Shown: positions 8,803 through 17,724 of the stretch, in pieces
Layout: every line of letters starts with the position of its first letter
Numbering within the stretch: position 1 is the stretch's first letter
NCBI GenBank assembly: GCA_012729505.1
Contig: JAAYDA010000058.1
Span: 1-43,679 of the forward strand
DNA: 43,679 nucleotides
DNA from: Syntrophomonadaceae bacterium
GTDB lineage: Bacteria > Bacillota > Syntrophomonadia > Syntrophomonadales > DTU052
Reading direction: 5' to 3'
Made by a program: the position numbers and the translations under genes
The notes under the pieces: generated by a model
Database searches by the model: none
The model's input: the letters and a program-made list of their open reading frames with translations, nothing else
Told to the model about the DNA's origin: nothing

Positions 8803-11100
8803 TCACAAGCTTTCTAAACCGATTTCTTCCCACCCTTTTTTCATCTCATTGAATTCGGGAGAAGTAAGCCCATAATATTCCGCAACCTCCCAGGCCAGAT
8901 AAATGTCCGGCAAATGACCGGATGCCACCTGACGGGCAGCCTCAATAATCCTGTTCTGAGATGATGAACCGGTGTACAAAGGGATTTTTACAGAGCTCAG
9001 CAGGTTAGGACCGGCAAAGCTCTTGCCTCCTACCATTGAGAAAGAGGATACTGCATACTCTATTGGCAGACTGTTTAATATCCCGGTCAAATACCAGGCT
9101 TCTTCTATAGATTTACAGGCTATCATGGTGTGGGTTTCCTGAGGAATGACTGTCTTTGTTTCTCCGTGGACCACTGCGGCTTTCATTCTTCTTCCAAAAC
9201 GCTGCCATACAGTTTTTATATCTGCCAGCGTGTATTTTCCTACGTTAAACATGGAGTAAAAAGGATCTGTATCCTTGAAGTAGCGGCGATAAGCGGCTCG
9301 ATTCGAAAGCTGTTCCTCAAAGTGCTGTAAGTACTTAAAGGTACGGGGATAATTGCGAGCCATGATGGGTAAGCTTATTCCCCGCCGCGAAACCGGATCC
9401 TGGGTCAGAATCAGATGTGCCGAGGGTTCTGCTTTCCAGCGAGTGACGTCAGCTCCCTTAAGCAACGGATAAACCAGATTTTCCTCAATAATCCATTCCA
9501 CTGCGGAAACTCCCCTTCGCGAGGAATTATACAAGTTGCGGATCTTGACTAAACCAGCTTCAGGACGTTCAAGTATTTCCACCCATAAGATACCGTTGGC
9601 TCCGCCGGTATTGGCTCCTTCCCGGGCAATATAGTCGGGGGATCCCCCTATAATCTTACTCAGAGAATCCCGGCAGCCTCGTCCATAAGTCAGCCACGGG
9701 GATCTCTTGTCTTCTCGATTAACCGGTTCAGCTATAAGATGGCGAAAGGAGTCTTCATGGGGTCTGGACCCGGTTTCCGGAAGCCGGGTCCAATAACGAT
9801 ATGGAATCGGATATTCGGTAAGAGAATCCTTTTCAAGATACAGGATCGCGGTTCGGTTAGAGGCGCTTGTAAAGGGTTTAATATCTGACAAATCTTCTGC
9901 CAGCAATACCTTTAAACCGATTCCGCCAGGCAAAGAAAAGCTGCGGAACCCTTCCGCCGCCCCTCCGGATTTGAAAACCGTCTGAGTTATTATGAACGCC
10001 AATTTTCCATGGGGTTTCAGATATTCATCTGCACTGACTAAAGTCATCAGCGTAGAAAAGTCCTTTTTTCCCTTTCCCAAAATAGTGTCCATTCCGCTAT
10101 GGGCAAATAAGCCGTATCTTTGCCACACATTCAAGGTAGCCTGCCGATATTCTTTGGACAGAGACTCCCAGTTTATCCAGGGTGGATTGCCTGCTACAAA
10201 ATCAAACTTTTGGTTCTCTTTGTTTTTGCTGAGATCGCTAAACAAGCCTTCATCTTGATTCAAGACTATGTCTCTCAAATAGACAGGAATCTCCAGCAAC
10301 TGCTGTCCCTGCTCCCATTGATAACGGGAAGCGACCAGATAATTTACCTTAGCCGCCAACACTGCCAGAGGATTTATATCCATACCCACCACTGAAGGCC
10401 ATTCCTGCTTGGAATCTTTGGAGACGGCTATTTTCCGGTGCCATGCCTCAATTAAAAAGGCGCCTGATCCACAAGCCGGATCCAACAAAGTCTCCCCCTT
10501 TTCCCTGCCATAGTCAATAGTGTCCAAAATATGGACCACCAGCCACTGGGGGGTGTAATGCTCCCCTAATCTATGGCGCACCTTGGCCGAAAACAAGCTC
10601 TCATAAAAGGGCTGAAACAGATCCTGAGAACAGGATTCATAATCGACATTTGCTGCAGCTGACAATATCTCAATAAATATCTTTGTCCTTCCGCCCATAC
10701 CCAGACCTAATCCGGGAGGGCAATCAACCGGTGCCAGGTTTGATAACCCCAGTTCAACGAAAGGTCGCCCAGCCAACAACTCATCTAATTCTAAATTAAG
10801 ATATTCAGGTGCATTTCTGTTCAAATAAGCCCAAGCCACACTTATGATAACCAGCAAATAAAATGCCTGCCTTATAAAGAGGTGTTCACTCTCATTAAGC
10901 TCGCTCAAATCATCAAAAAGCCCATCAATGCTCAGATTGCCATCCTGACCCATAAAGCCCTGCCACCTTTTGATGATTTGCTGCCGTTCCGAAGAATACA
11001 TCAACTCATTCTTAAAGTATTCAAGAGTCTGGTCAGCAATTGGTGAGCCTTCCCTAAAATAAAAGAGCAGCCGGGCCGAGGCCTCTTCAGAACCACGCAT
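8803..11100 (-). CDS. N6-adenine DNA methyltransferase, Eco57I class, no nuclease domain seen
   Basis: A 765-residue amino-methyltransferase of the Eco57I/type IIG class. A helical N-terminal region (1-170) leads into LFQPFYESLF...LGEHYTPQWLV (about 161-188). The SAM motif I DPACGSGAFL is at 207-216, and the catalytic NPPW at 305-308 is typical of N6-adenine methylation. From about 400 onward the sequence resembles a target-recognition region. Type IIG enzymes usually carry a PD-(D/E)xK nuclease at the N-terminus, which is not recognisable here. No restriction gene is adjacent (QueT and rubrerythrin flank it). It may be a solitary regulatory methylase or a type II enzyme that lost its nuclease. 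The ATG at 11100 has GGAGGAGGT 7-8 bases upstream. Confidence 0.85.
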   Translation of the reverse strand: MRGSEEASARLLFYFREGSPIADQTLEYFKNELMYSSERQQIIKRWQGFMGQDGNLSIDGLFDDLSELNESEHLFIRQAFYLLVIISVAWAYLNRNAPEYLNLELDELLAGRPFVELGLSNLAPVDCPPGLGLGMGGRTKIFIEILSAAANVDYESCSQDLFQPFYESLFSAKVRHRLGEHYTPQWLVVHILDTIDYGREKGETLLDPACGSGAFLIEAWHRKIAVSKDSKQEWPSVVGMDINPLAVLAAKVNYLVASRYQWEQGQQLLEIPVYLRDIVLNQDEGLFSDLSKNKENQKFDFVAGNPPWINWESLSKEYRQATLNVWQRYGLFAHSGMDTILGKGKKDFSTLMTLVSADEYLKPHGKLAFIITQTVFKSGGAAEGFRSFSLPGGIGLKVLLAEDLSDIKPFTSASNRTAILYLEKDSLTEYPIPYRYWTRLPETGSRPHEDSFRHLIAEPVNREDKRSPWLTYGRGCRDSLSKIIGGSPDYIAREGANTGGANGILWVEILERPEAGLVKIRNLYNSSRRGVSAVEWIIEENLVYPLLKGADVTRWKAEPSAHLILTQDPVSRRGISLPIMARNYPRTFKYLQHFEEQLSNRAAYRRYFKDTDPFYSMFNVGKYTLADIKTVWQRFGRRMKAAVVHGETKTVIPQETHTMIACKSIEEAWYLTGILNSLPIEYAVSSFSMVGGKSFAGPNLLSSVKIPLYTGSSSQNRIIEAARQVASGHLPDIYLAWEVAEYYGLTSPEFNEMKKGWEEIGLESL

Positions 11101-11264
11101 ATCTCAACCTCCTCCGCAACAACCTGTTCCCGGGCTTAATAATAAAGTTCTTAAAAAAGCATTAAACGGTATGAATTTCACTCATACCGCTCAATACTAT
11201 CTTACCATTACAAATTTTAAATTTATTATATTTTTACAGCATCGTTTATCGAAGCTCTGCAAGC

Positions 11265-11855
11265 TTAATATGGCTGAGTATAGACTTCGAAATGAGCCTG
11301 AGGGTGGATACAGGCCGGGCAAATTTCAGGTGCTTTGCTGCCTTCATGAACATAACCGCAATTGCCGCATTTCCACTGGGTCGAGACTTCTTTTTCAAAT
11401 ACCTTATTAGATTCAATGTTCGCAGCCAATTTATTAAATCTTATTTCGTGCCACTTTTCGGCGGAAGCAATCATCCGGAATGCAGCGCCAATCTGAGGAA
11501 ACCCTTCTTCATCGGCAACTTTGGCGAAAGCAGGATACAAATCTGCCCATTCTTCATTTTCACCGGCGGCGGCGGCCTTTAAATTTTCCAGAGTATTCCC
11601 TTGAGCAACGGGGAAATCAGCAGTAATATCAATCATTTTCGGCATTTCCCCTTCAAAGCCTTCTAACAGGAACTTCCAAAACCTCTTGGCATGTTCTTTT
11701 TCATTGTCAGCAGTCTCGATAAAGATGTTACGCATCTGCTTGTAACCTTCTTTGTCGGCTATTGATGCATAATACGTATAACGCATACGAGCCTGGGATT
11801 CACCAGCAAATGCTTTCATCAAATTAACAGCAGTCTTGGTTCCTTTTAAATTCAT
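11265..11855 (-). CDS. rbr: Rubrerythrin
   Basis: A 196-residue non-heme diiron peroxidase that reduces hydrogen peroxide in anaerobes, with electrons from rubredoxin or NADH oxidoreductases. The ferritin-like domain has the metal-ligand patterns ESQARMRYTYYA, ETADNEKEHAKRFW and SAEKWHEIRF. The C-terminal rubredoxin-like domain has CGNCGYVHEG and CPACIHPQAHF. Full length is normal for the family. The ATG at 11855 follows AAGGAGG. It fits the window's other oxidative-stress genes (catalase, MsrAB). A TATAAT-like element lies about 50 bases upstream, but no PerR box could be assigned. Confidence 0.95.
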   Translation of the reverse strand: MNLKGTKTAVNLMKAFAGESQARMRYTYYASIADKEGYKQMRNIFIETADNEKEHAKRFWKFLLEGFEGEMPKMIDITADFPVAQGNTLENLKAAAAGENEEWADLYPAFAKVADEEGFPQIGAAFRMIASAEKWHEIRFNKLAANIESNKVFEKEVSTQWKCGNCGYVHEGSKAPEICPACIHPQAHFEVYTQPY

Positions 11856-12036
11856 TACGTATTTACCTCCTTGTTTTACTTTTTATCGTCAGGGTTTGAT
11901 TATACACCCTGGATGCCAAATCATTATACAATATGCCTATTATAAATCAGCAAATATTGAACACTTCAAATCCATGTTGCCCATTCTAACCCCATATAAG
12001 TCGGAAGCCAAGTTACTTTTGCCATGGACTTTTGCT

Positions 12037-12188
12037 ATGGCCGCCTAAGTCCCTTTCGGCCATTATATCATTGGAGCGAAGCTTCATTGATATAATCGGC
12101 GCATGTGCGTTTGGCCTCAGGCCAAAATATCGCACGCGCTCTGAAATAAACTATATAATGGCCGCCTAAGTCCCTTTCGGCCATTATA
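12037..12188. repeat. Nested palindrome block with two direct copies of a hairpin
   Basis: Two direct copies of a hairpin (ATGGCCG, loop CCTAAGTCCCTTT, CGGCCAT) lie at 12037-12063 and 12154-12188. The second extends to an 11-bp stem TATAATGGCCG/CGGCCATTATA. Between them are TTATATCA (12063-12070)/TGATATAA (12088-12095), and a two-part hairpin: GCGC..GTGCG (12099-12109)/CGCACGCGC (12131-12139) capped by TTTGGCC-TCA-GGCCAAA (12110-12126). It is noncoding. It could be a miniature mobile element, a structured RNA or a protein-binding array. Confidence 0.75.
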
Positions 12189-12215
12189 CATTATTCTCCA
12201 CAAATTCGGTAATAT

Positions 12216-12233
12216 TTATTTTAAAATAGTTAT
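12216..12233. repeat. 18-bp direct repeat, left copy
   Basis: TTATTTTAAAATAGTTAT is identical to 12569-12586. The two copies flank a 335-base segment that holds dispersed repeat B and a GC-rich structured stretch. Confidence 0.9.
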
Positions 12234-12339
12234 GTCATTGACCAAGAAGAATGGGTTAGGACTAGTGGGAGACAAATACTTTAGCAGATTTGATTCCTGA
12301 ATTCGACCCGGATTGAATTCCACTTGTTCCCGGAATGAG
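12234..12339. repeat. Dispersed repeat copy B
   Basis: The counterpart of copy A (6243-6354), sharing the same order of conserved blocks through GATTGAATTCCACTTG and TCCCGGAATGAG. It begins directly after the left 18-bp direct repeat. Confidence 0.75.
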
Positions 12340-12550
12340 AACCGGCAAATACAACTGCTCAGGTTCGGCCTCCGGGCAGCACACCGCCAATTCGCCCTCC
12401 ATGGCTCAGGAGGCGGACTCAGGACCTCCTGTCCTTCGGCTGCCCTTTTGCCTCACCTTCGTAGGTGTTTGCTCGGTTTTCATCCCCACGGTCACTACGT
12501 CAGCATTCCACCCGTGTCTTCGCACCCAACTTCCTAATTGGGGATGACAT
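12340..12550. other. GC-rich, hairpin-rich noncoding stretch
   Basis: This segment is clearly richer in GC than its flanks. Visible pairings are GGGCAGC (about 12373)/GCTGCCC (about 12434-12440), CCTCC-ATGGCTCA-GGAGG, AGGAC-CTCCT-GTCCT and CACCT-TCGT-AGGTG. Both reading frames through it are short and unlike any known protein. It may be a structured RNA or part of an inserted element. No SRP, 6S, RNase P or tmRNA core was recognised. Confidence 0.45.
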
Positions 12551-12568
12551 TTTTCCAGATCAATAACA

Positions 12569-12586
12569 TTATTTTAAAATAGTTAT
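12569..12586. repeat. 18-bp direct repeat, right copy
   Basis: Identical to 12216-12233. Its last base is the first base of the -35 box of the next promoter. Confidence 0.9.
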
Positions 12587-12637
12587 TGACATAAGTTCAT
12601 AACCTGATATACTAATAGCAGTAACGGGCATATGCCC
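12586..12637 (+). promoter_or_regulatory. SigA promoter and GGGCATATGCCC operator of the ORP-like cluster
   Basis: TTGACA (12586-12591), a 16-base spacer and TATACT (12608-12613) make a near-consensus housekeeping promoter. The perfect 12-bp palindrome GGGCATATGCCC (12626-12637) lies just past the expected transcript start and before the ribosome site, where a bound repressor would block transcription. The DUF134 protein encoded second in the cluster is the natural candidate to bind it; this is inference. Confidence 0.75.
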
Positions 12638-12661
12638 TAAACTATTCAAGGAGGTGATTAT

Positions 12662-12907
12662 ATGCCCAGGAGAGACGGAACCGGTCCAGTTGGGAATGGA
12701 CCTCGAACCGGAGGCGCCCGAGGATTTTGCAGAAGCAGCATCCCAGCAAATCCTAATAGAGGCTGGAAATGCACAGGAATGGGAAGGGGTTTTCGACACT
12801 TTGGATACCAGGATCTCGAGAGCAATCAGAAAAGTGCATTGCTTCATCGGAAGGAATGGTTGGAAGGTGAGCTGAATGCCATTAACAGACATCTTGAAAC
12901 CCCTTAG
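12662..12907 (+). CDS. DUF5320-family small Gly/Arg-rich protein
   Basis: An 81-residue protein that opens MPRRDGTGPVGNGPRTGGARGFC, the hallmark of DUF5320 proteins, which are widespread in anaerobes beside NifX-like and MinD-type genes. The N-terminal half is Gly/Arg-rich with two Cys. The C-terminal 30 residues form a likely amphipathic helix (LLHRKEWLEGELNAINRHLE). Its function is unknown; a metal-related or chaperone role is only suggested by its constant neighbours. The ATG at 12662 follows AAGGAGGT by about 7 bases. It is the first gene of the cluster behind the promoter/operator. Confidence 0.85.
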   Translation: MPRRDGTGPVGNGPRTGGARGFCRSSIPANPNRGWKCTGMGRGFRHFGYQDLESNQKSALLHRKEWLEGELNAINRHLETP

Positions 12908-12973
12908 ACTATTAAGACTCGGGTTAATATGATAAACTCCTGATACAATCAACAGCCTTAGGAGGTGGGCTCT

Positions 12974-13354
12974 TTGTCCAGACCAGTTAAGTGGCGGAGA
13001 GTTTGTTGTGAACCCGAGACTAACGTATTCGGCCCCCTGAACAGAAATAATTTTTCCGGAGAATACGTGATAATGACTGTGGAGGAATATGAGACTTTGC
13101 GTCTTATAGACCTGGAAAGATTTACACAGGAAGAATGCGCCGACCGAATGGCTGTGGCCCGCACAACAGTTCAACGAATATATAACGAGGCTCGCCAAAA
13201 GGTAGCCAGATCCTTAGTAAATGGAGCAGTTCTCAGAATTGAAGGCGGGAACTACAAGCTTTGCGAGGACGCAGAAATCAGTTCAGGATGCCCCCATTGT
13301 CATCGTCGGCGATGGCGGCGAGACAAGGACGAAACCATCAGCCCGATGGAATAA
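12974..13354 (+). CDS. DUF134 (UPF0251) DNA-binding regulator
   Basis: A 126-residue predicted DNA-binding protein. The opening LSRPVKWRRVCCEPETNVFGP matches the conserved N-terminus of DUF134 (RPxKxRRVC...P...F.P). A sigma-factor-like helix-turn-helix follows (LERFTQEECADRMAVARTTVQRIYNEARQKVA, about 46-78). The C-terminus has CEDAEISSGCPHCHRRR, a possible metal or cluster ligand set. The TTG at 12974 is the likely start, because the GGAGGT site (12961-12966) overlaps the earlier in-frame GTG at 12965. It probably autoregulates the cluster through the palindrome at 12626-12637 in response to metal or redox state; this is inference. Confidence 0.85.
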   Translation: MSRPVKWRRVCCEPETNVFGPLNRNNFSGEYVIMTVEEYETLRLIDLERFTQEECADRMAVARTTVQRIYNEARQKVARSLVNGAVLRIEGGNYKLCEDAEISSGCPHCHRRRWRRDKDETISPME

Positions 13355-13472
13355 CAAGGGTATCCCCTGGTTTTGGGCGGTGCATTCTTCGGTTTTTTCC
13401 AGCAAGGATTGAGAAAGACTTTAGTTATCATTCTTGCCATTACCATACTGAAAACCGAAGGAGGAATACTCT

Positions 13473-13841
13473 GTGAAAATTGCTTTACCGGTGGAAAATA
13501 ATATGGCCGATTCCAATATAAGCCCATCCTTTGGTCGAGCTCCTTATTTTCTCATTTATGACAGTGATACTGACGAAAGCATATATGTTAATAACACCGC
13601 AGCCGCCAGTCAGGGAGGTGCCGGAATTAAAGCAGCTCAGGCTGTAATTGATCTGGGTGCCCAGGCGCTTATTACTCCACGCTGCGGCGAGAATGCAGCC
13701 CAGGTAATCAAGATTGCCGGAATTGAAATGTATAAGTCCCAGGGCTTATCGGCCGCCGCAAATATTGCTGCATATAAGGCGAATACCCTATCCCCCCTTG
13801 ATGATATTCATCCCGGATTTCATAATCACGGAAACAAGTAA
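13473..13841 (+). CDS. NifX/NifB-like cofactor-binding protein (ORP-like), first copy
   Basis: A 122-residue protein of the dinitrogenase iron-molybdenum cofactor biosynthesis family. It starts MKIALPVENN, has SPSFGRAPYFLIYD, and ends in a short His-containing tail (HPGFHNHGNK). Family members bind metal-sulfur clusters: NifX and NafY carry FeMo-co precursors, and the Desulfovibrio orange protein binds a Mo-Cu sulfide cluster. The GTG start at 13473 follows GAAGGAGG. The gene ends one base before the next start, so translation is coupled to the first ATPase. No nif genes are present, which argues against a nitrogenase role. Confidence 0.88.
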   Translation: MKIALPVENNMADSNISPSFGRAPYFLIYDSDTDESIYVNNTAAASQGGAGIKAAQAVIDLGAQALITPRCGENAAQVIKIAGIEMYKSQGLSAAANIAAYKANTLSPLDDIHPGFHNHGNK

Positions 13842-13842
13842 G

Positions 13843-14703
13843 ATGAAAATTGCGGTCCTAAGTGGAAAAGGTGGCACCGGTAAAACCCTGGTATCAGTAA
13901 ACCTGGCTGCAGTGGCTGAAAGCTCCCGATATATCGACTGTGATGTTGAAGAACCTAATGGACATCTGTTTTTTAAACCCCAGGAGCTTCAAACTCATAA
14001 TGAAGTAACAGTTATGATTCCCAGCTTTGATGCGGATAAATGTAATGGCTGCCGGATATGTACAGATTTTTGCAAGTTCAACGCATTAGCCTTGGTAAAT
14101 GATAAGCCATTATTATTTCCTCAGATATGCCACTCATGTGGCGGCTGTAGTCTGCTGTGCCCGGAAAAGGCCGTAACCCTGCACCCCAAACCAATCGGCG
14201 TTATTCAAGAGGGTGTTTATAGGCAGGTTCACGTCCTGACCGGAATACAAAACCCGGGAGAGCCTTCAGGCGTTCCCATAATCCAAAGACTTTTGAGCAT
14301 TATCCCGGCAGATAACCGGATAAACTTTATCGATTGTCCGCCGGGAAGTGCCTGTGTAGTCATTGAAAGTATCAGGGATGCTGATTACTGTATTTTGGTG
14401 GCTGAGCCTACCTTGTTTGGAGTTCATAACCTGAGTATGGTCCACCAACTGGTTAGAGTGTTTAATAAGCCTTTTGGAGCCATTCTAAATAAGAACCTTG
14501 ATGGAGAAAATCCGGCCGAATACTATTGTATGGAACAGAGAATTCCAGTTCTGGGCAGGATTCCATTTAACATCGAGCTGGGACGACTGAATTCCGACGG
14601 ACAAATTGCAGCCCATGAGAAACCGGAATTTCATAAATTATTCACTCAATTGCTGAACAGAGTTGTCCAGGAGGTGGGTCATGAAACAATTATTAATCCT
14701 TAG
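13843..14703 (+). CDS. MinD/Mrp-type ATPase with inserted ferredoxin domain, first copy
   Basis: A 286-residue P-loop ATPase of the MinD superfamily. The deviant Walker A is SGKGGTGKT (7-15). An inserted 2[4Fe-4S] ferredoxin has C67, C70, C73, C77 and C96, C99, C102, C106. A later switch region reads FIDCPPGSACVV. Such proteins in the Desulfovibrio ORP complex work with NifX-like proteins; related Nbp35/Mrp proteins carry iron-sulfur clusters. The ATG at 13843 directly follows the previous stop, and the ribosome site is weak, suggesting coupling. The first switch reads CDVEEPN. The 3' end overlaps the next gene by 23 bases. Confidence 0.92.
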   Translation: MKIAVLSGKGGTGKTLVSVNLAAVAESSRYIDCDVEEPNGHLFFKPQELQTHNEVTVMIPSFDADKCNGCRICTDFCKFNALALVNDKPLLFPQICHSCGGCSLLCPEKAVTLHPKPIGVIQEGVYRQVHVLTGIQNPGEPSGVPIIQRLLSIIPADNRINFIDCPPGSACVVIESIRDADYCILVAEPTLFGVHNLSMVHQLVRVFNKPFGAILNKNLDGENPAEYYCMEQRIPVLGRIPFNIELGRLNSDGQIAAHEKPEFHKLFTQLLNRVVQEVGHETIINP

Positions 14704-15562
14704 CGGAAAAGGCGGCACCGGCAAGACCACTTTGGCCAGCGCGTTTATTAAACTATCTGATACCCGGGCCATGGCTGATTGCGATGTGGACGCCCCTAAC
14801 CTGCATCTGGTCATGAGTCAGACATCGGTGCCCCAAAGATCCGATTATTATGGAATGAAGACTGCGGTTATTGATGCCCACAACTGCATAAAGTGCGGTC
14901 TGTGTGAAGATCACTGTCAGTTTAATGCCATCAAGGATTTTGTGGCAGACCCTTATTCCTGTGAAGGCTGTGGGGTATGTGAAGCTATTTGTCCTATGGA
15001 GGCTGTGTCACTGAAAGACAGCATTGCCGGTGAATTATTGCTCTATAAAAATGATCACGTTTTCTCGACCGGCACACTTAAGATGGGGAGCGGCACTTCC
15101 GGGAAGCTGGTAACTGAAGTAAAGAATCAACTGTTTTCGGTTTCTGTAAATTCCGAACTGGTCATTATCGATGGCTCCCCCGGAATCGGCTGTCCCGTCA
15201 TTGCCTCAATCAGCGGTGTGGACATGGTTCTGATTGTAACTGAACCATCCATATCCGGCATGAGTGATTTGAAACGAATCCTTCAAACCGTAGCATCTTT
15301 TCAGGTACCTGCCGCGGTTTGTGTTAACAAACATGATACCAATCCAGAAAATACGGCCCGTATTATATCATATTGTCAGGAAGCGGGGATCTCCTTTGTT
15401 GGTTGTATTCCCTTTGATCCCCTGGCTGTTGAAGCAATAAACAACGGATACACCATAGCAGACATAGAATGTCCCTCAGGCAGTGCAGCCCAAGCCGTAT
15501 TTGCCCGGACCATAAAAAAGCTCAAATCCGATGGATTACCTTCATCAGACACCTTTGAATAA
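14681..15562 (+). CDS. MinD/Mrp-type ATPase with inserted ferredoxin domain, second copy
   Basis: A 293-residue paralogue of the preceding ATPase. Walker A is SGKGGTGKT (8-16). The ferredoxin insert has C69, C72, C75, C79 and C94, C97, C100, C104, with CDVDAPN in the first switch region and IIDGSPGIGCPV in the second. The ATG at 14681 follows GGAGGTGGG and lies inside the end of the upstream gene (23-base overlap). The paired, overlapping ATPase genes suggest a heterodimer that uses ATP to load or unload a metal cluster on the NifX-like partners. This is inferred from ORP/Nbp35 biology. Confidence 0.92.
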   Translation: MKQLLILSGKGGTGKTTLASAFIKLSDTRAMADCDVDAPNLHLVMSQTSVPQRSDYYGMKTAVIDAHNCIKCGLCEDHCQFNAIKDFVADPYSCEGCGVCEAICPMEAVSLKDSIAGELLLYKNDHVFSTGTLKMGSGTSGKLVTEVKNQLFSVSVNSELVIIDGSPGIGCPVIASISGVDMVLIVTEPSISGMSDLKRILQTVASFQVPAAVCVNKHDTNPENTARIISYCQEAGISFVGCIPFDPLAVEAINNGYTIADIECPSGSAAQAVFARTIKKLKSDGLPSSDTFE

Positions 15563-15601
15563 CCCGGCCTGAAAAAATAAAAAATAACTGGAGGTTATAC
15601 T

Positions 15602-15958
15602 ATGAAAATAGCAGTTGCAAGTGAAAACGAATCCGTTACCCAGCACTTTGGACATTGTAAAAACTTTAATATCTTTGAAACGGAAAATGGACAAATAAGT
15701 GCAAAAGAATCAATTCCTAATCCAGGTCACATTCCGGGATTTTTACCTAACTTTCTTAACGAAATGGGAGTTAAAGTAATCATATCCGGCGGGATGGGTG
15801 CCGGTGCCATTGATATTTTCAATCAGAAAGGCATTGAAGTAATTACCGGAGCAAGTGGAAATGCAGAAATCATTGTACAACAGTATCTCTTGGGCAATCT
15901 CAAATCTACCGGTTCAGTATGTCACGAACATGAACACCATGATACCTGCGGCCACTAG
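15602..15958 (+). CDS. NifX/NifB-like protein with His-rich tail, second copy
   Basis: A 118-residue NifX-like protein (MKIAVASENESVTQHFGHCKNFNIFE, then VKVIISGGMGAGAIDIFNQKGIEVITG). The tail CHEHEHHDTCGH holds two Cys and six His and looks like a metal site. It differs from the first copy, which has a short His tail only, so the two may carry different states of a cluster. The ATG at 15602 follows TGGAGGT. It is the last gene of the cluster. Confidence 0.88.
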   Translation: MKIAVASENESVTQHFGHCKNFNIFETENGQISAKESIPNPGHIPGFLPNFLNEMGVKVIISGGMGAGAIDIFNQKGIEVITGASGNAEIIVQQYLLGNLKSTGSVCHEHEHHDTCGH

Positions 15959-16005
15959 AGTCTTTGAAGACCATCATTGCCAAATAAAACAACAATTCGA
16001 ACCAA

Positions 16006-16039
16006 CAGAAAGGAGCACCTGCAAAGGTGTCCCTTTCTG
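16006..16039. terminator. Hairpin between convergent genes
   Basis: CAGAAAGG-AG-CACCT, loop GCAA, AGGTG-TC-CCTTTCTG is a stem of 8 plus 5 bp with one internal mismatch. It lies between the cluster end and the convergent UbiB gene and probably serves both strands, although no long T-run follows. Confidence 0.6.
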
Positions 16040-16059
16040 CCTTAAAAGCACCCCGGCCG

Positions 16060-17724
16060 CTAACCCCGCAGTGATCCAAAAAAGAAGGCCAGCATTACCG
16101 CAATAGCCAGGCCAAAGCCGGCCGCCCCCAGATAAGCATACTGGGCTGTCTCCGCCGAATGGTTGGTCTGGAGAATAAGAGCTGATCCAATAAGAGCCCC
16201 TGTGGCCATCATACTTAGTCCCAGACGGCTTACCAGTTGAGTTATTTTCCGGTTCATCCTGGGACTGATATCCATTTGAAAATTCAATCGCAGCCGGCCT
16301 TCTCCTGCGTTTTTCAGAACCCGGTTAAGATTTGCCGGCATTTCTCCCAATGGCTTAATATCCTGATAAAAGCGGCTTCGTAAATATTTGGAGATGTTTT
16401 CCGGTTTAAGACGTTCACGATAAACACGAGAAGCCAAAGGGCCCGCAACTTCAGTGAATTCAAAGGAAGGATCCAGCTTCTTGCCAAGACCTTCCACAGT
16501 AATCAAAGCCTTCATCAAAGAAGTCAGATAGGAAGGCATTCTAAGATTGTAGCGAAAAGCCAGATCCATTATGTCAACCCGCAGCCGCTTCATATCAATA
16601 TCACCAATACTCCCCGCCATCACCCCTCCAATCAACTCCCCTAAATCCTCAGAAAACCCTTCTTCCACATCCGCATCATCCAACACACCCATGTCGCGAA
16701 GTACAGAGGTGGCACGGTACGGGTCTTTTTTGCTGATTGAAATCAGCAGCTCTCCTATATACATCAAACGTCGTTCACCCAGATACCCCATTTGTCCAAA
16801 ATCAATAAATGAAATAGTATTTTCATCAACTGCCAAGACATTGCCAGGATGGGGATCAGCCTGAAAGAAACCATGGAGGAGAATCTGAGACAGGAACGCT
16901 TCGGTTCCCAGCCGCGAAATATTGCGGCGACTCCAGCCTGCCCTGTCAATACTTTCAATGTCACTCAGCTTATACCCGGAAATATAGTCTTCAATTAACA
17001 CCCGGGGAGTACTATATTGGCCATAAACCCGGGGAATGACAACCCATTTATCATCAAGAAAATTATGATAAACCTTTTCCGTGTTGCGAGCTTCCCGCTC
17101 GTAATCCAGCTCCCTCAACAAGGTTTTGGCAAAATCCTCTATTATGGCCAGAACACCGATCTTGGAAGCTTCTACAGATCTTTTCTCCGCTCTGCGAGCC
17201 AGGCCTTTAAGTATTTCCAGATCCTTGCGAACCATACTCTCGATCCCGGGACGCTGAATTTTGACTATTACCTCTTCCCCTGTCTGCAGCCGGGCCCGAT
17301 GTACCTGTCCAATAGATGCTGCTGCCAGCGGATTCCAATTAAAATCAGAAAAGATGTCATCGAGACACCCTAATTCCTCTTTAATTACCGTTTTCAGATC
17401 TTCGTGATTTATGGGGGTGACTCTATCCTGCAACTGTTCCAATTCTTCAATATATACCCGCGGAAGAATATCTGCTCGAGTGCTGAGCATTTGTCCGAAT
17501 TTAACAAAGGTCGGACCCAATTCCATAAAAATTTCACGCAGATTGCGTGCCATTATATAATCATTAGCCTCTGTTTCGTGAATCGTAGTGCGAACGCTCC
17601 CAAAGCCGGTCAGTTTCCCCAATCCAAACTTCGTCAGAAAAACACCCATGCCATGGCGGGCAAACGCTCCCACAATCTCACGTCTTCGACGAACATATTT
17701 TAGCTGCCACCAGTATTGCATCAT
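16060..17724 (-). CDS. UbiB/ABC1 (AarF) family atypical kinase
   Basis: A 554-residue ABC1-family kinase-like protein. It shows the family KxGQ motif (TFVKFGQMLSTRADILP), the Ala-rich nucleotide loop AAASIGQVHRA, the Lys of VIVKIQRPG, and catalytic-loop and metal motifs ADPHPGNVL and FIDFGQMG. Two C-terminal membrane helices anchor it (LSMMATGALIGSALIL and YLGAAGFGLAIAVMLAFFFG). Relatives act in isoprenoid quinone and lipid metabolism. The ATG at 17724 (MMQYWWQ) with AGAGGG just before is preferred; an upstream TTG at 17781 would add 19 residues of unlikely sequence. Confidence 0.88.
   Translation of the reverse strand: MMQYWWQLKYVRRRREIVGAFARHGMGVFLTKFGLGKLTGFGSVRTTIHETEANDYIMARNLREIFMELGPTFVKFGQMLSTRADILPRVYIEELEQLQDRVTPINHEDLKTVIKEELGCLDDIFSDFNWNPLAAASIGQVHRARLQTGEEVIVKIQRPGIESMVRKDLEILKGLARRAEKRSVEASKIGVLAIIEDFAKTLLRELDYEREARNTEKVYHNFLDDKWVVIPRVYGQYSTPRVLIEDYISGYKLSDIESIDRAGWSRRNISRLGTEAFLSQILLHGFFQADPHPGNVLAVDENTISFIDFGQMGYLGERRLMYIGELLISISKKDPYRATSVLRDMGVLDDADVEEGFSEDLGELIGGVMAGSIGDIDMKRLRVDIMDLAFRYNLRMPSYLTSLMKALITVEGLGKKLDPSFEFTEVAGPLASRVYRERLKPENISKYLRSRFYQDIKPLGEMPANLNRVLKNAGEGRLRLNFQMDISPRMNRKITQLVSRLGLSMMATGALIGSALILQTNHSAETAQYAYLGAAGFGLAIAVMLAFFFGSLRG

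What the first reader, a model, noticed from the sequence alone, without database searches (positions are those of the whole stretch)
12586..15958. ORP-like cluster with its own DUF134 regulator and a clean palindromic operator
Six genes (DUF5320, DUF134, NifX-like, two ferredoxin-bearing MinD-type ATPases, NifX-like with His/Cys tail) are packed behind one SigA promoter. A perfect GGGCATATGCCC lies just after the expected transcript start. Desulfovibrio ORP proteins combine NifX-like and MinD-type proteins and bind a Mo-Cu sulfide cluster. Here there are no nif genes, and the regulator is DUF134 rather than the sigma-54 activator known in Desulfovibrio. The cluster is best seen as an ATP-driven metal-cluster carrier system of unknown purpose with self-regulation.
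Basis: partly seen in the sequence, partly recalled or inferred. Interest (0 to 1): 0.7.

Follow-up and report, generated by a model that had tools for sequence, protein, structure and literature searches.

The report
Self-regulated metal-sulfide operon with paired operators
A six-gene operon of an anaerobic bacterium, probably for handling iron-sulfur or other metal-sulfide clusters, carries the gene for its own regulator, and comparison with many relatives shows which DNA sites this uncharacterised regulator family most likely binds and which amino acid helps choose them.

Summary
Six co-directional genes (DUF5320, DUF134, NifX-like, two MinD-type ATPases with ferredoxin modules, NifX-like) follow one SigA-type promoter. 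GGGCATATGCCC lies 6-17 bases after the predicted start and occurs exactly once in the genome.

It is more than a lone palindrome. Many relatives carry pairs of CATATG-core palindromes, usually 38-39 bases apart: site 1 overlaps the -35 box and the -10 lies between. GACATATGTC is the most enriched of all 1,024 palindromic 10-mers upstream of 71 DUF134 genes. The window fits, with a degenerate site 1 (TGACATAAGTTC) 39 bases before the palindrome.

The outer bases vary with one DUF134 recognition-helix residue: Arg goes with G...C (51 of 55), other residues rarely do (5 of 62). The window has Arg and G...C. Phylogenetic independence is only moderate. Among the first 30 pairs listed by a 398-genome scan, 17 of 18 with a -35-like outer arm precede DUF5320, DUF134, NifX or MinD genes, against 0 of 12 without.

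DUF134 is most likely a sigma-region-4-like repressor of its own operon. The metal-sulfide function is inferred from relatives. It is ORP-like, but not a canonical ORP system: no fused MrpORP, no sigma-54-type promoter. Nothing was tested at the bench.

The parts
12586..12613 (+). SigA-type promoter: -35 TTGACA 12586-12591, 16-base spacer, -10 TATACT 12608-12613; predicted start near 12620
   Evidence: of 85 DUF134 pairs elsewhere 84 have a -35 (5 of 6 or better) on site 1 and 81 a -10 (5 of 6 or better), 71 of them with a 16-base spacer
12587..12598 (+). operator site 1, degenerate: TGACATAAGTTC (11 of 12 to TGACATATGTTC), overlapping the -35
   Evidence: sequence; distance 39 to site 2 as in relatives; inferred, and nearly half of its letters are the -35 itself
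12626..12637 (+). operator site 2: perfect palindrome GGGCATATGCCC, just downstream of the predicted start
   Evidence: CATATG-core site at this place in many relatives
12662..12907 (+). DUF5320 protein, 81 aa, Gly/Arg-rich and cationic (pI 10.4)
12974..13354 (+). DUF134 regulator, 126 aa from TTG 12974 (start codon chosen by me; GTG 12965 is also open), sigma-region-4-like HTH; conserved Cys11, Cys97, Cys109
13175..13177 (+). codon of DUF134 Arg68 in the recognition helix (ARTTVQRIYNEARQKV), the residue that varies with the operator's outer bases
13473..13841 (+). NifX-like protein 1 (Nitro_FeMo-Co domain)
13843..14703 (+). MinD-type P-loop ATPase a (GKGGTGKT) with two CxxCxxCxxxC ferredoxin motifs
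14681..15562 (+). MinD-type P-loop ATPase b (GKGGTGKT) with two 4Fe-4S ferredoxin motifs
15602..15958 (+). NifX-like protein 2 with His/Cys tail CHEHEHHDTCGH; matches positions 265-365 of MrpORP (NF041136, E 3e-33), i.e. its NifX domain without the ATPase part

Best explanation
An autoregulated operon of an anaerobic Firmicute (order of Syntrophomonas and Syntrophothermus) for handling a metal-sulfide or iron-sulfur cluster. DUF134 is a small regulator whose helix-turn-helix is built like sigma factor region 4. Dimers bind two CATATG-core palindromes about 39 bases apart, one lying on the -35 box and one just after the transcription start, so that bound protein blocks RNA polymerase (dimers and repression: inferred from symmetry and position). 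Arg68 of the recognition helix favours G at the outermost base, giving GGGCATATGCCC here (correlation shown, contact inferred). Conserved cysteines of DUF134 probably let a metal or Fe-S cluster set binding (inferred). The controlled genes make two MinD-type ATPases with ferredoxin modules that pass electrons or clusters to two NifX-like carriers, with a small cationic Gly-rich DUF5320 protein as partner (inferred from ORP, MrpORP and IssA relatives).
For: Motif: of all 1,024 palindromic 10-mers (one mismatch allowed) the top three enriched upstream of 71 DUF134 genes are GACATATGTC (23 regions against 0 in shuffles), GGCATATGCC (11 against 1) and AACATATGTT (12 against 2.3). Geometry: 85 pairs upstream of DUF134 genes, distance 38-39 in 54; 84 of 85 have the -35 on site 1 and 81 of 85 a -10 between, against 15.5 expected. 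Covariation: in 117 genes Arg goes with a G-type arm in 51 of 55, other residues in 5 of 62 (the window is one of the 51, its arms entered by hand); among pairs found DUF134-first, 22 of 26 against 3 of 39; in the first data set, with Arg and Lys together, Fisher p=5e-7 and 2e-6 for the two inner arms. Lys pairs show a third form, TAG/CTA or TCG/CTG in 5 of 6. Targets: 17 of 18 flanked pairs among the first 30 listed precede DUF5320/DUF134/NifX/MinD genes, 0 of 12 unflanked. Fold: mostly sigma region 4 domains in the Foldseek and VIA lists. Function: NifX-like and MinD-type genes lie within the fetched flanks of 59 and 62 of 80 named DUF134 loci; Orp3/Orp4, MrpORP and IssA are metal-sulfide proteins in the passages read.
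Against: No binding, repression or metal measurement exists here. Of 185 DUF134 genes found without use of the motif, 89 had neither a pair within 700 nor a single site within 120 bases by my rules; the second DUF134 gene of the nearest relative (L037) is one of them. The covariation rests on related sequences: only 4 independent contrasts lie on well-supported branches (median p 0.25); on the best tree, most of whose forks are unresolved, 10-12 of 14 agree and 0-2 oppose. Exceptions: 4 Arg proteins without G-type arms, 5 non-Arg proteins with them. In the window, site 1 is imperfect. The outer-arm rule used to sort real pairs from chance ones was set after I had seen. The DUF134 model has mean pLDDT 75 and its Cys tail is under 50; no Foldseek match reaches E 0.001. 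The sensed signal and the metal are unknown.
Confidence: 0.7

Rival explanations
1. The palindromes are sites of another regulator, such as LexA (SOS boxes GAAC-N4-GTTC) or a CRP/FNR-type protein, and only look tied to DUF134.
For: GAACATATGTTC is both a possible DUF134 site and an SOS-type box (SOS consensus recalled); in the own genome it precedes a DNA polymerase IV-like gene, and unflanked pairs in L113, L114 and L126 precede LexA- or Pol IV-like genes (gene names by my reading of the proteins). TGACATATGTCA overlaps the CRP site gtGtGAcatatgTCaCactttt of PDB 1cgp as listed in PMC4655474.
Against: GGGCATATGCCC fits neither GAAC-N4-GTTC nor the CRP arms TGTGA/TCACA; flanked pairs sit in front of DUF134/DUF5320/NifX/MinD genes in 17 of 18 of the unselected set, and the arms vary with a DUF134 residue. 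No search for CRP/FNR or LexA genes in the own genome was made.
Confidence: 0.08
2. DUF134 is an activator or a sigma-appropriating factor: its sigma-4-like domain on site 1 replaces or reshapes the -35 contact of SigA.
For: The fold is that of -35-binding domains and the half-site TTGACAT reads like a -35 hexamer plus T; site 1 overlaps the -35 in 84 of 85 pairs.
Against: These promoters already have good -35 and -10 boxes with a 16-base spacer; a second site just past the start is a usual place of a repressor (general knowledge); nothing suggests polymerase contacts.
Confidence: 0.17
3. The gene products are a true ORP complex with a Mo-Cu sulfide cluster acting in cell division or septum placement, as proposed for Desulfovibrio.
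For: Two MinD-type ATPases with double ferredoxin motifs and NifX-like proteins as in Orp3/Orp4/Orp8; NifX2 matches the NifX domain of MrpORP.
Against: No fused MrpORP in the cluster, and another promoter class and regulator; the MrpORP paper reports a [3Fe-4S] centre, not Mo-Cu, on the domain most like NifX2; nothing here bears on division.
Confidence: 0.2
4. Remnant of a nitrogenase cofactor pathway.
For: Both NifX-like proteins carry the Nitro_FeMo-Co domain.
Against: No PF00148 match in the genome; similar operons recur in many anaerobes with a regulator and operator.
Confidence: 0.03

Closest known systems
[quoted passage not shown]
   Same: Paired MinD-type ATPases with two ferredoxin motifs each and NifX-domain proteins
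   Different: One operon under a SigA-type promoter with DUF134; no fused MrpORP; DUF5320 present; Desulfovibrio has two divergent sigma-54 operons driven by DVU2106 with IHF. Whether DVU2107 is a DUF134 protein, or whether DUF5320 occurs there, was not determined.
MrpORP (NF041136), Fe-S carrier of Desulfovibrio
   Same: NifX2 aligns to its C-terminal NifX domain, positions 265-365, E 3e-33, and has an HFGHC stretch and a Pro-rich stretch like those described in the paper
   Different: The Mrp ATPase domain is absent from this gene; the own genome's best Mrp-type match is on another contig
IssA thioferrate storage protein of Pyrococcus furiosus (PMC5524996)
   Same: NifX-domain family; the paper proposes that a cationic Gly-rich tail binds thioferrate, and DUF5320 is a separate cationic Gly-rich protein (window pI 10.4, median 9.7 in 59 proteins)
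   Different: No such tail on NifX1 or NifX2; no thioferrate evidence; no NifX-DUF5320 fusion seen in the fetched loci
Sigma factor region 4 (-35-binding domain), e.g. 5fgm, 2h27, 1ku7
   Same: HTH fold (VIA: 5fgm Z 6.9, rmsd 3.2, 59 aligned; 2h27 Z 6.7, 4.2, 62; 1ku7 Z 6.2, 2.9, 61); site overlaps a -35 hexamer
   Different: Stand-alone small protein with flanking strands and Cys-bearing ends; operator is a palindrome, implying a dimer. Z under 8 may mean only a common arrangement.
DUF134 / UPF0251 / COG1342
   Same: Member by Pfam, 74.9 bits
   Different: No function, operator or solved structure found in the searches made

Membership tests
DUF134 (PF02001) | Pfam profile over gathering score | tested here: met
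   74.9 bits against 27
DUF5320 (PF17253) | Pfam profile over gathering score | tested here: met
   53.3 bits against 27
ORP system (Desulfovibrio type) | two MinD-type ATPases each with two ferredoxin motifs | tested here: met
ORP system (Desulfovibrio type) | single-domain NifX-like protein (Orp8 type) | tested here: met
   NifX1 and NifX2; orthology to Orp8 itself not tested
ORP system (Desulfovibrio type) | MrpORP fusion (Orp9) | tested here: not met
   NifX2 matches only positions 265-365 of NF041136, 115.6 bits against a cut-off of 450; both PF02579 places of the genome are single-domain
ORP system (Desulfovibrio type) | sigma-54 promoter with enhancer-binding regulator | tested here: not met
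   SigA-type promoter with DUF134 operator pair; no scan for sigma-54 promoters and no genome-wide search for sigma-54 regulators was made
ORP system (Desulfovibrio type) | Mo-Cu sulfide cluster and a five-protein complex | not testable with these tools
   needs protein chemistry
Nitrogenase cofactor maturation (NifX proper) | nif structural or cofactor genes in the genome | tested here: not met
   no PF00148 match in the own genome; other nif families not searched
IssA thioferrate storage | NifX domain with cationic Gly-rich C-terminal tail | tested here: not met
   the tails of NifX1/NifX2 are short and His-bearing or His/Cys-rich; a split arrangement with DUF5320 is not excluded. [quoted passage not shown]
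LexA (SOS) regulon | GAAC-N4-GTTC box | tested here: not met
   GGGCATATGCCC lacks the GAAC/GTTC arms (sequence); consensus recalled, not from a call

The most novel reading that the evidence does not exclude
DUF134 proteins are a broadly spread family of sigma-4-like repressors in anaerobes that read the state of cellular metal sulfide through their conserved cysteines and recognise what amounts to a doubled -35 hexamer; the regulated set is a split thioferrate-type store or carrier, in which NifX proteins nucleate the metal sulfide, DUF5320 supplies the cationic Gly-rich coat that IssA carries as its tail, and MinD-ferredoxin ATPases load or mobilise it.
Probability: 0.15. Interest if true: 0.85.

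Novelty: new variant of a known kind. Interest (0 to 1): 0.62.

Why it matters
DUF134 was found in 266 of 398 genomes sampled in this phylum, yet no function, operator or structure turned up in the searches made. A predicted binding site, a promoter geometry and a residue that varies with the site make the family directly testable. The regulon ties together DUF5320, NifX-like and MinD-ferredoxin proteins of unknown purpose, and in Desulfosporosinus a DsrK-like protein, pointing at sulfur and metal-sulfide handling. If DUF134 senses cluster status, this would be an Fe-S or metal-sulfide control circuit of anaerobes outside the known IscR/Fur/Rex types (those recalled).

Tried and rejected
Chance palindrome: rejected by enrichment and geometry. 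LexA box: rejected for the window site, kept as a look-alike for GAACATATGTTC sites. RNA element in the leader: no Rfam match in 11000-17000 at E up to 1. Other targets in the own genome: GRRCATATGYYC occurs four times; apart from the window, one is SOS-like and two lie inside long ORFs; exact spaced pairs are absent, so I claim no second target here. Of the ten further GGGCATATGCCC sites with one mismatch only three were read (L033-L035); all three lie inside ORFs. Phylogenetic test: an earlier tree with 61 rows gave 2 supported contrasts; the 117-row tree gave 4, not significant by themselves; the 14-contrast test is my own script on a weakly resolved tree (quoted: its eight commonest outcomes of 300 random pairings). 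Fusion of DUF5320 with NifX was looked for by a motif and a Gly-rich tail in the fetched loci and not found; two NifX proteins have long His/Cys/Gly tails. DUF134 hits in two iron-limitation papers proved to be other DUF names that begin with the same digits; of the papers listed for DUF134 and UPF0251 I opened only these two and PMC5886521. A full cross-table of pair genomes against DUF134 genomes was not made, because one search listed only 20 of its 132 negatives.

Counting rules that matter: identical DUF134 domains were counted once; rows without a recognisable helix were dropped; pairs whose residue could not be read were dropped. The 213 DUF134 genes are 185 found by family or protein, 27 found by way of the pair pattern, and the window, so 85 of 213 is not a prevalence; the 185 give 65 pairs, 31 singles, 89 neither. 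The window had no pair by my rule (its site 1 is imperfect), and its arms (TTC|GGG) were entered by hand. Loci L131-L164 were chosen by me from the listing, mostly because they looked like promoters, so the 52 of 56 is biased; L101-L130, one locus for each of the first 30 genomes listed, was not chosen by me. Genes were named by profiles grown from the window's proteins and a DUF5320 motif; 'MinD' there and takes in Mrp and other MinD-type ATPases. The control count (26 genomes against 130) was counted by eye from its table.
Full report
What is there. Between 12586 and 15958 on the + strand lie a SigA-type promoter, a palindrome and six genes: DUF5320 (12662-12907), DUF134 (12974-13354), NifX-like 1 (13473-13841), MinD-type ATPase a (13843-14703), MinD-type ATPase b (14681-15562) and NifX-like 2 (15602-15958). 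Pfam supports each over its curated cut-off. Both ATPases carry the GKGGTGKT P-loop and two cysteine motifs of the 4Fe-4S ferredoxin type. NifX2 matches the NifX domain of MrpORP, positions 265-365 of NF041136, E 3e-33, but no Mrp ATPase is attached; the own genome's best Mrp-type match is on another contig. The two NifX-like proteins are the only PF02579 proteins of the genome, and no PF00148 nitrogenase-type protein was found. Contigs of the same-family genome G001 and the same-order genome G031 have the lengths of records titled Syntrophothermus sp. DTU052 and Syntrophomonas sp. DTU019, so the window belongs to that order.

The operator is real and is one of a pair. DUF134 is present in 81 of 101 related genomes. 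I fetched the surroundings of many of these genes. Upstream of 71 distinct DUF134 genes, the three most enriched of all 1,024 palindromic 10-mers (one mismatch allowed) were GACATATGTC (23 regions against 0 in dinucleotide shuffles), GGCATATGCC (11 against 1) and AACATATGTT (12 against 2.3). By looser rules 38 of the 71 have a site. Often two sites stand together. With later loci and 80 named ones, 185 distinct DUF134 genes found without use of the motif give 65 with a pair within 700 bases upstream, 31 with a single site within 120 bases and 89 with neither. Over all 85 pairs (20 of them found through the pair pattern), distances peak at 38 (30) and 39 (24); 84 of 85 have a -35 of at least 5 of 6 on site 1 and 81 of 85 a -10 of at least 5 of 6 behind it, 71 of them with a 16-base spacer, against 15.5 expected from shuffled inter-site bases. 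The window has the same plan: TTGACA at 12586, a 16-base spacer, TATACT, a degenerate site 1 (TGACATAAGTTC, 12587-12598) and GGGCATATGCCC 39 bases further on. The cluster loci of same-family genomes G001, G002 and G004 have TGACATATGTCA or TGACATATGTCG followed by CGACATATGTCA, with TATAAT between in the two that I read. The second DUF134 gene of G001 (L037) has no such site and no cluster.

The site follows the protein. The residue after the conserved Gln of the recognition helix ([AS]RxTxQ-X-I) is mostly Arg or Gly, and sometimes Lys, Ala or Ser. With Gly, Ala or Ser the inner arms of the pair are mostly TGA/TGG and TCA/CCA; with Arg they are mostly GGG/GAA/GAG and TTC/CTC/CCC; with Lys TAG/CTA or TCG/CTG in 5 of 6 pairs. 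In 117 genes, 51 of 55 Arg proteins have a G-type arm against 5 of 62 others; the window, whose arms I entered by hand, is one of the 51. Restricted to pairs found DUF134-first it is 22 of 26 against 3 of 39. In the first data set, with Arg and Lys taken together, Fisher tests give 5e-7 and 2e-6 for the two inner arms, and 1.3e-4 for each within the ARTT/ARST subfamily alone; the outer arms show little or no such link, as expected if they serve the -35. The window has Arg68 and GGG...CCC, whereas its same-family relatives have Gly and TGA/CGA...TCA. Limits: the genes are related. On well-supported branches there are only four independent contrasts (on average 2.7 agree, 0.3 oppose; median p 0.25). 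On the best tree, most of whose forks are unresolved, 14 contrasts give 10-12 in agreement and 0-2 against in the eight commonest pairings. I take direct recognition as likely, not proven.

The fold fits. An AlphaFold model built from an alignment of 20 DUF134 proteins of window and loci (mean pLDDT 75, HTH above 90) matches mostly sigma factor region 4 domains, including structures bound to -35 DNA, besides some other HTH regulators; these Z values, 6.1-7.5, are in the range where a common arrangement alone can score. By a recalled alignment with the sigma-70 helix, Arg68 sits where sigma-70 has Gln589, a residue I recall as contacting -35 bases; this was not computed. The half-site TTGACAT resembles the -35 hexamer it overlaps. 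In those 20 aligned homologues, chosen by me, Cys11 and Cys109 are invariant and Cys97 is at least 90% conserved, which suggests, but does not show, a metal or Fe-S site. No solved DUF134 structure was found; the one weak match is a sigma factor.

Targets. A pair pattern was scanned over 398 genomes of the phylum: 130 have it, against 26 for the pattern read backwards (26 counted by eye). So part of the 130 must be chance. Of the first 30 pairs listed (L101-L130), 18 have an outer TGA or TCA arm, and 17 of these 18 have a DUF5320, DUF134, NifX or MinD gene start within 500 bases; of the 12 without such an arm, none does. The outer-arm rule was set. At least three of the 12 precede LexA- or Pol IV-like genes by my reading. 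Over L096-L164, partly chosen by me, the figures are 52 of 56 and 0 of 12; the four exceptions are a FUR-family gene (L125), DsrK-like genes (L135, L138) and one unexplained (L148). Several targets have no DUF134 gene within the 1.5 kb fetched, so the regulator appears to act in trans. A DsrK-like gene (381 and 390 bits against a DsrK cut-off of 400 for the two tested) was found in nine places of Desulfosporosinus and kin, eight of them in a stretch that also holds DUF134; CATATG sites stand upstream in seven (L079/L135, L138, L226, L228, L229, L230, L240) and none was found in two (L221, L231; the L221 gene is cut by the end of the stretch). In the own genome I found no second convincing target, and here the circuit may be one autoregulated operon.

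What it most likely does. From named precedents: Orp3/Orp4 each contain two 4Fe-4S ferredoxin motifs, Orp8 is homologous to proteins holding a Mo-Cu sulfide cluster (PMC6345978, introduction), the MrpORP NifX domain shows a [3Fe-4S] centre and its ATPase domain passes Fe-S clusters to partners (same paper, introduction and discussion), and IssA stores thioferrate, with a cationic Gly-rich tail proposed to bind it (PMC5524996, passages and one section). Two IssA homologues rise in Methanococcus voltae grown on pyrite (PMC8516115, passages). DUF5320 is small, cationic and Gly-rich (median pI 9.7 and 18% Gly in 59 proteins; window pI 10.4). The best reading is an ATP-using carrier or store for a metal-sulfide cluster, with DUF134 repressing it when the cluster or metal state is satisfied. 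Shown: gene content, operator conservation, geometry, covariation, target set. Inferred: repression, sensing, ATP use, the metal.

What it is not. It is ORP-like but not filed as an ORP system: the fused MrpORP was tested and not met, and the promoter class differs. D. vulgaris also has a gene DVU2107 in its orp operon (PMC4641369, one passage); whether it is a DUF134 protein was not checked. It shows no sign of a nif remnant, and the window site is not a LexA box. TGACATATGTCA, the commonest form elsewhere, overlaps a known CRP site (PMC4655474, one table row), so a CRP/FNR-type reader of the TGA form has to be kept in mind; the GGG form of the window does not fit it.

Print. DUF134, UPF0251 (with 'DNA-binding'), COG1342, DUF5320 and the motif TGACATATGTCA were searched in the held library. 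The listings showed no paper on DUF134 function or operators; I opened passages of four hits (PMC5886521; PMC10434189 and PMC7970244; PMC4655474) and not the rest. PMC3897727 was seen in passages. The library lacks most subscription papers, the 2011 ORP operon paper among them.

Noticed in passing
12234-12568 (element about 12255-12566): A roughly 310-bp stretch just upstream of the promoter belongs to a repeat family with 42 matches in this genome, itself included (the others 76-92% identical over various lengths); here it lies between two exact 18-bp copies of TTATTTTAAAATAGTTAT (12216, 12569). It looks like an inserted mobile repeat and may influence the operon.
   Followed up: partly
12037-12067 and 12158-12188: Two identical 31-bp copies of ATGGCCGCCTAAGTCCCTTTCGGCCATTATA, 121 bases apart, upstream of the repeat element.
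   Followed up: no
11265-11855 (- strand): A rubrerythrin gene stands divergently from the operon on the far side of the repeat.
   Followed up: no
L306:1501-1512 (own genome C41:8030): GAACATATGTTC before a DNA polymerase IV-like gene: an SOS-type box that overlaps in sequence with the DUF134 motif, a trap for motif scans.
   Followed up: yes
L079/L135, L138, L226, L228, L229, L230, L240: In Desulfosporosinus and kin a DsrK-like gene, mostly in the same stretch as the DUF134 cluster, has CATATG sites upstream, mostly as a pair; none seen in L221 and L231.
   Followed up: partly
L070:4610-4834 and L118:2249-2476 (- strand): Small proteins that begin like DUF5320 (MPxxDGTGPxGxG) but end in a Cys-rich CxxC...CxxC part: the N-terminal motif may be a shared tag of this system.
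   Followed up: no
R-type pairs, e.g. L140, L141, L226: In pairs of Arg-type DUF134 the outer right arm is often TCA although the inner arms are G-type, so the whole pair is near-palindromic; this could mean a second, divergent -35 or a bridging tetramer.
   Followed up: no
L040, L046: Other DUF134 genes have GGCTTAAGCC palindromes near -97, perhaps another specificity class.
   Followed up: no
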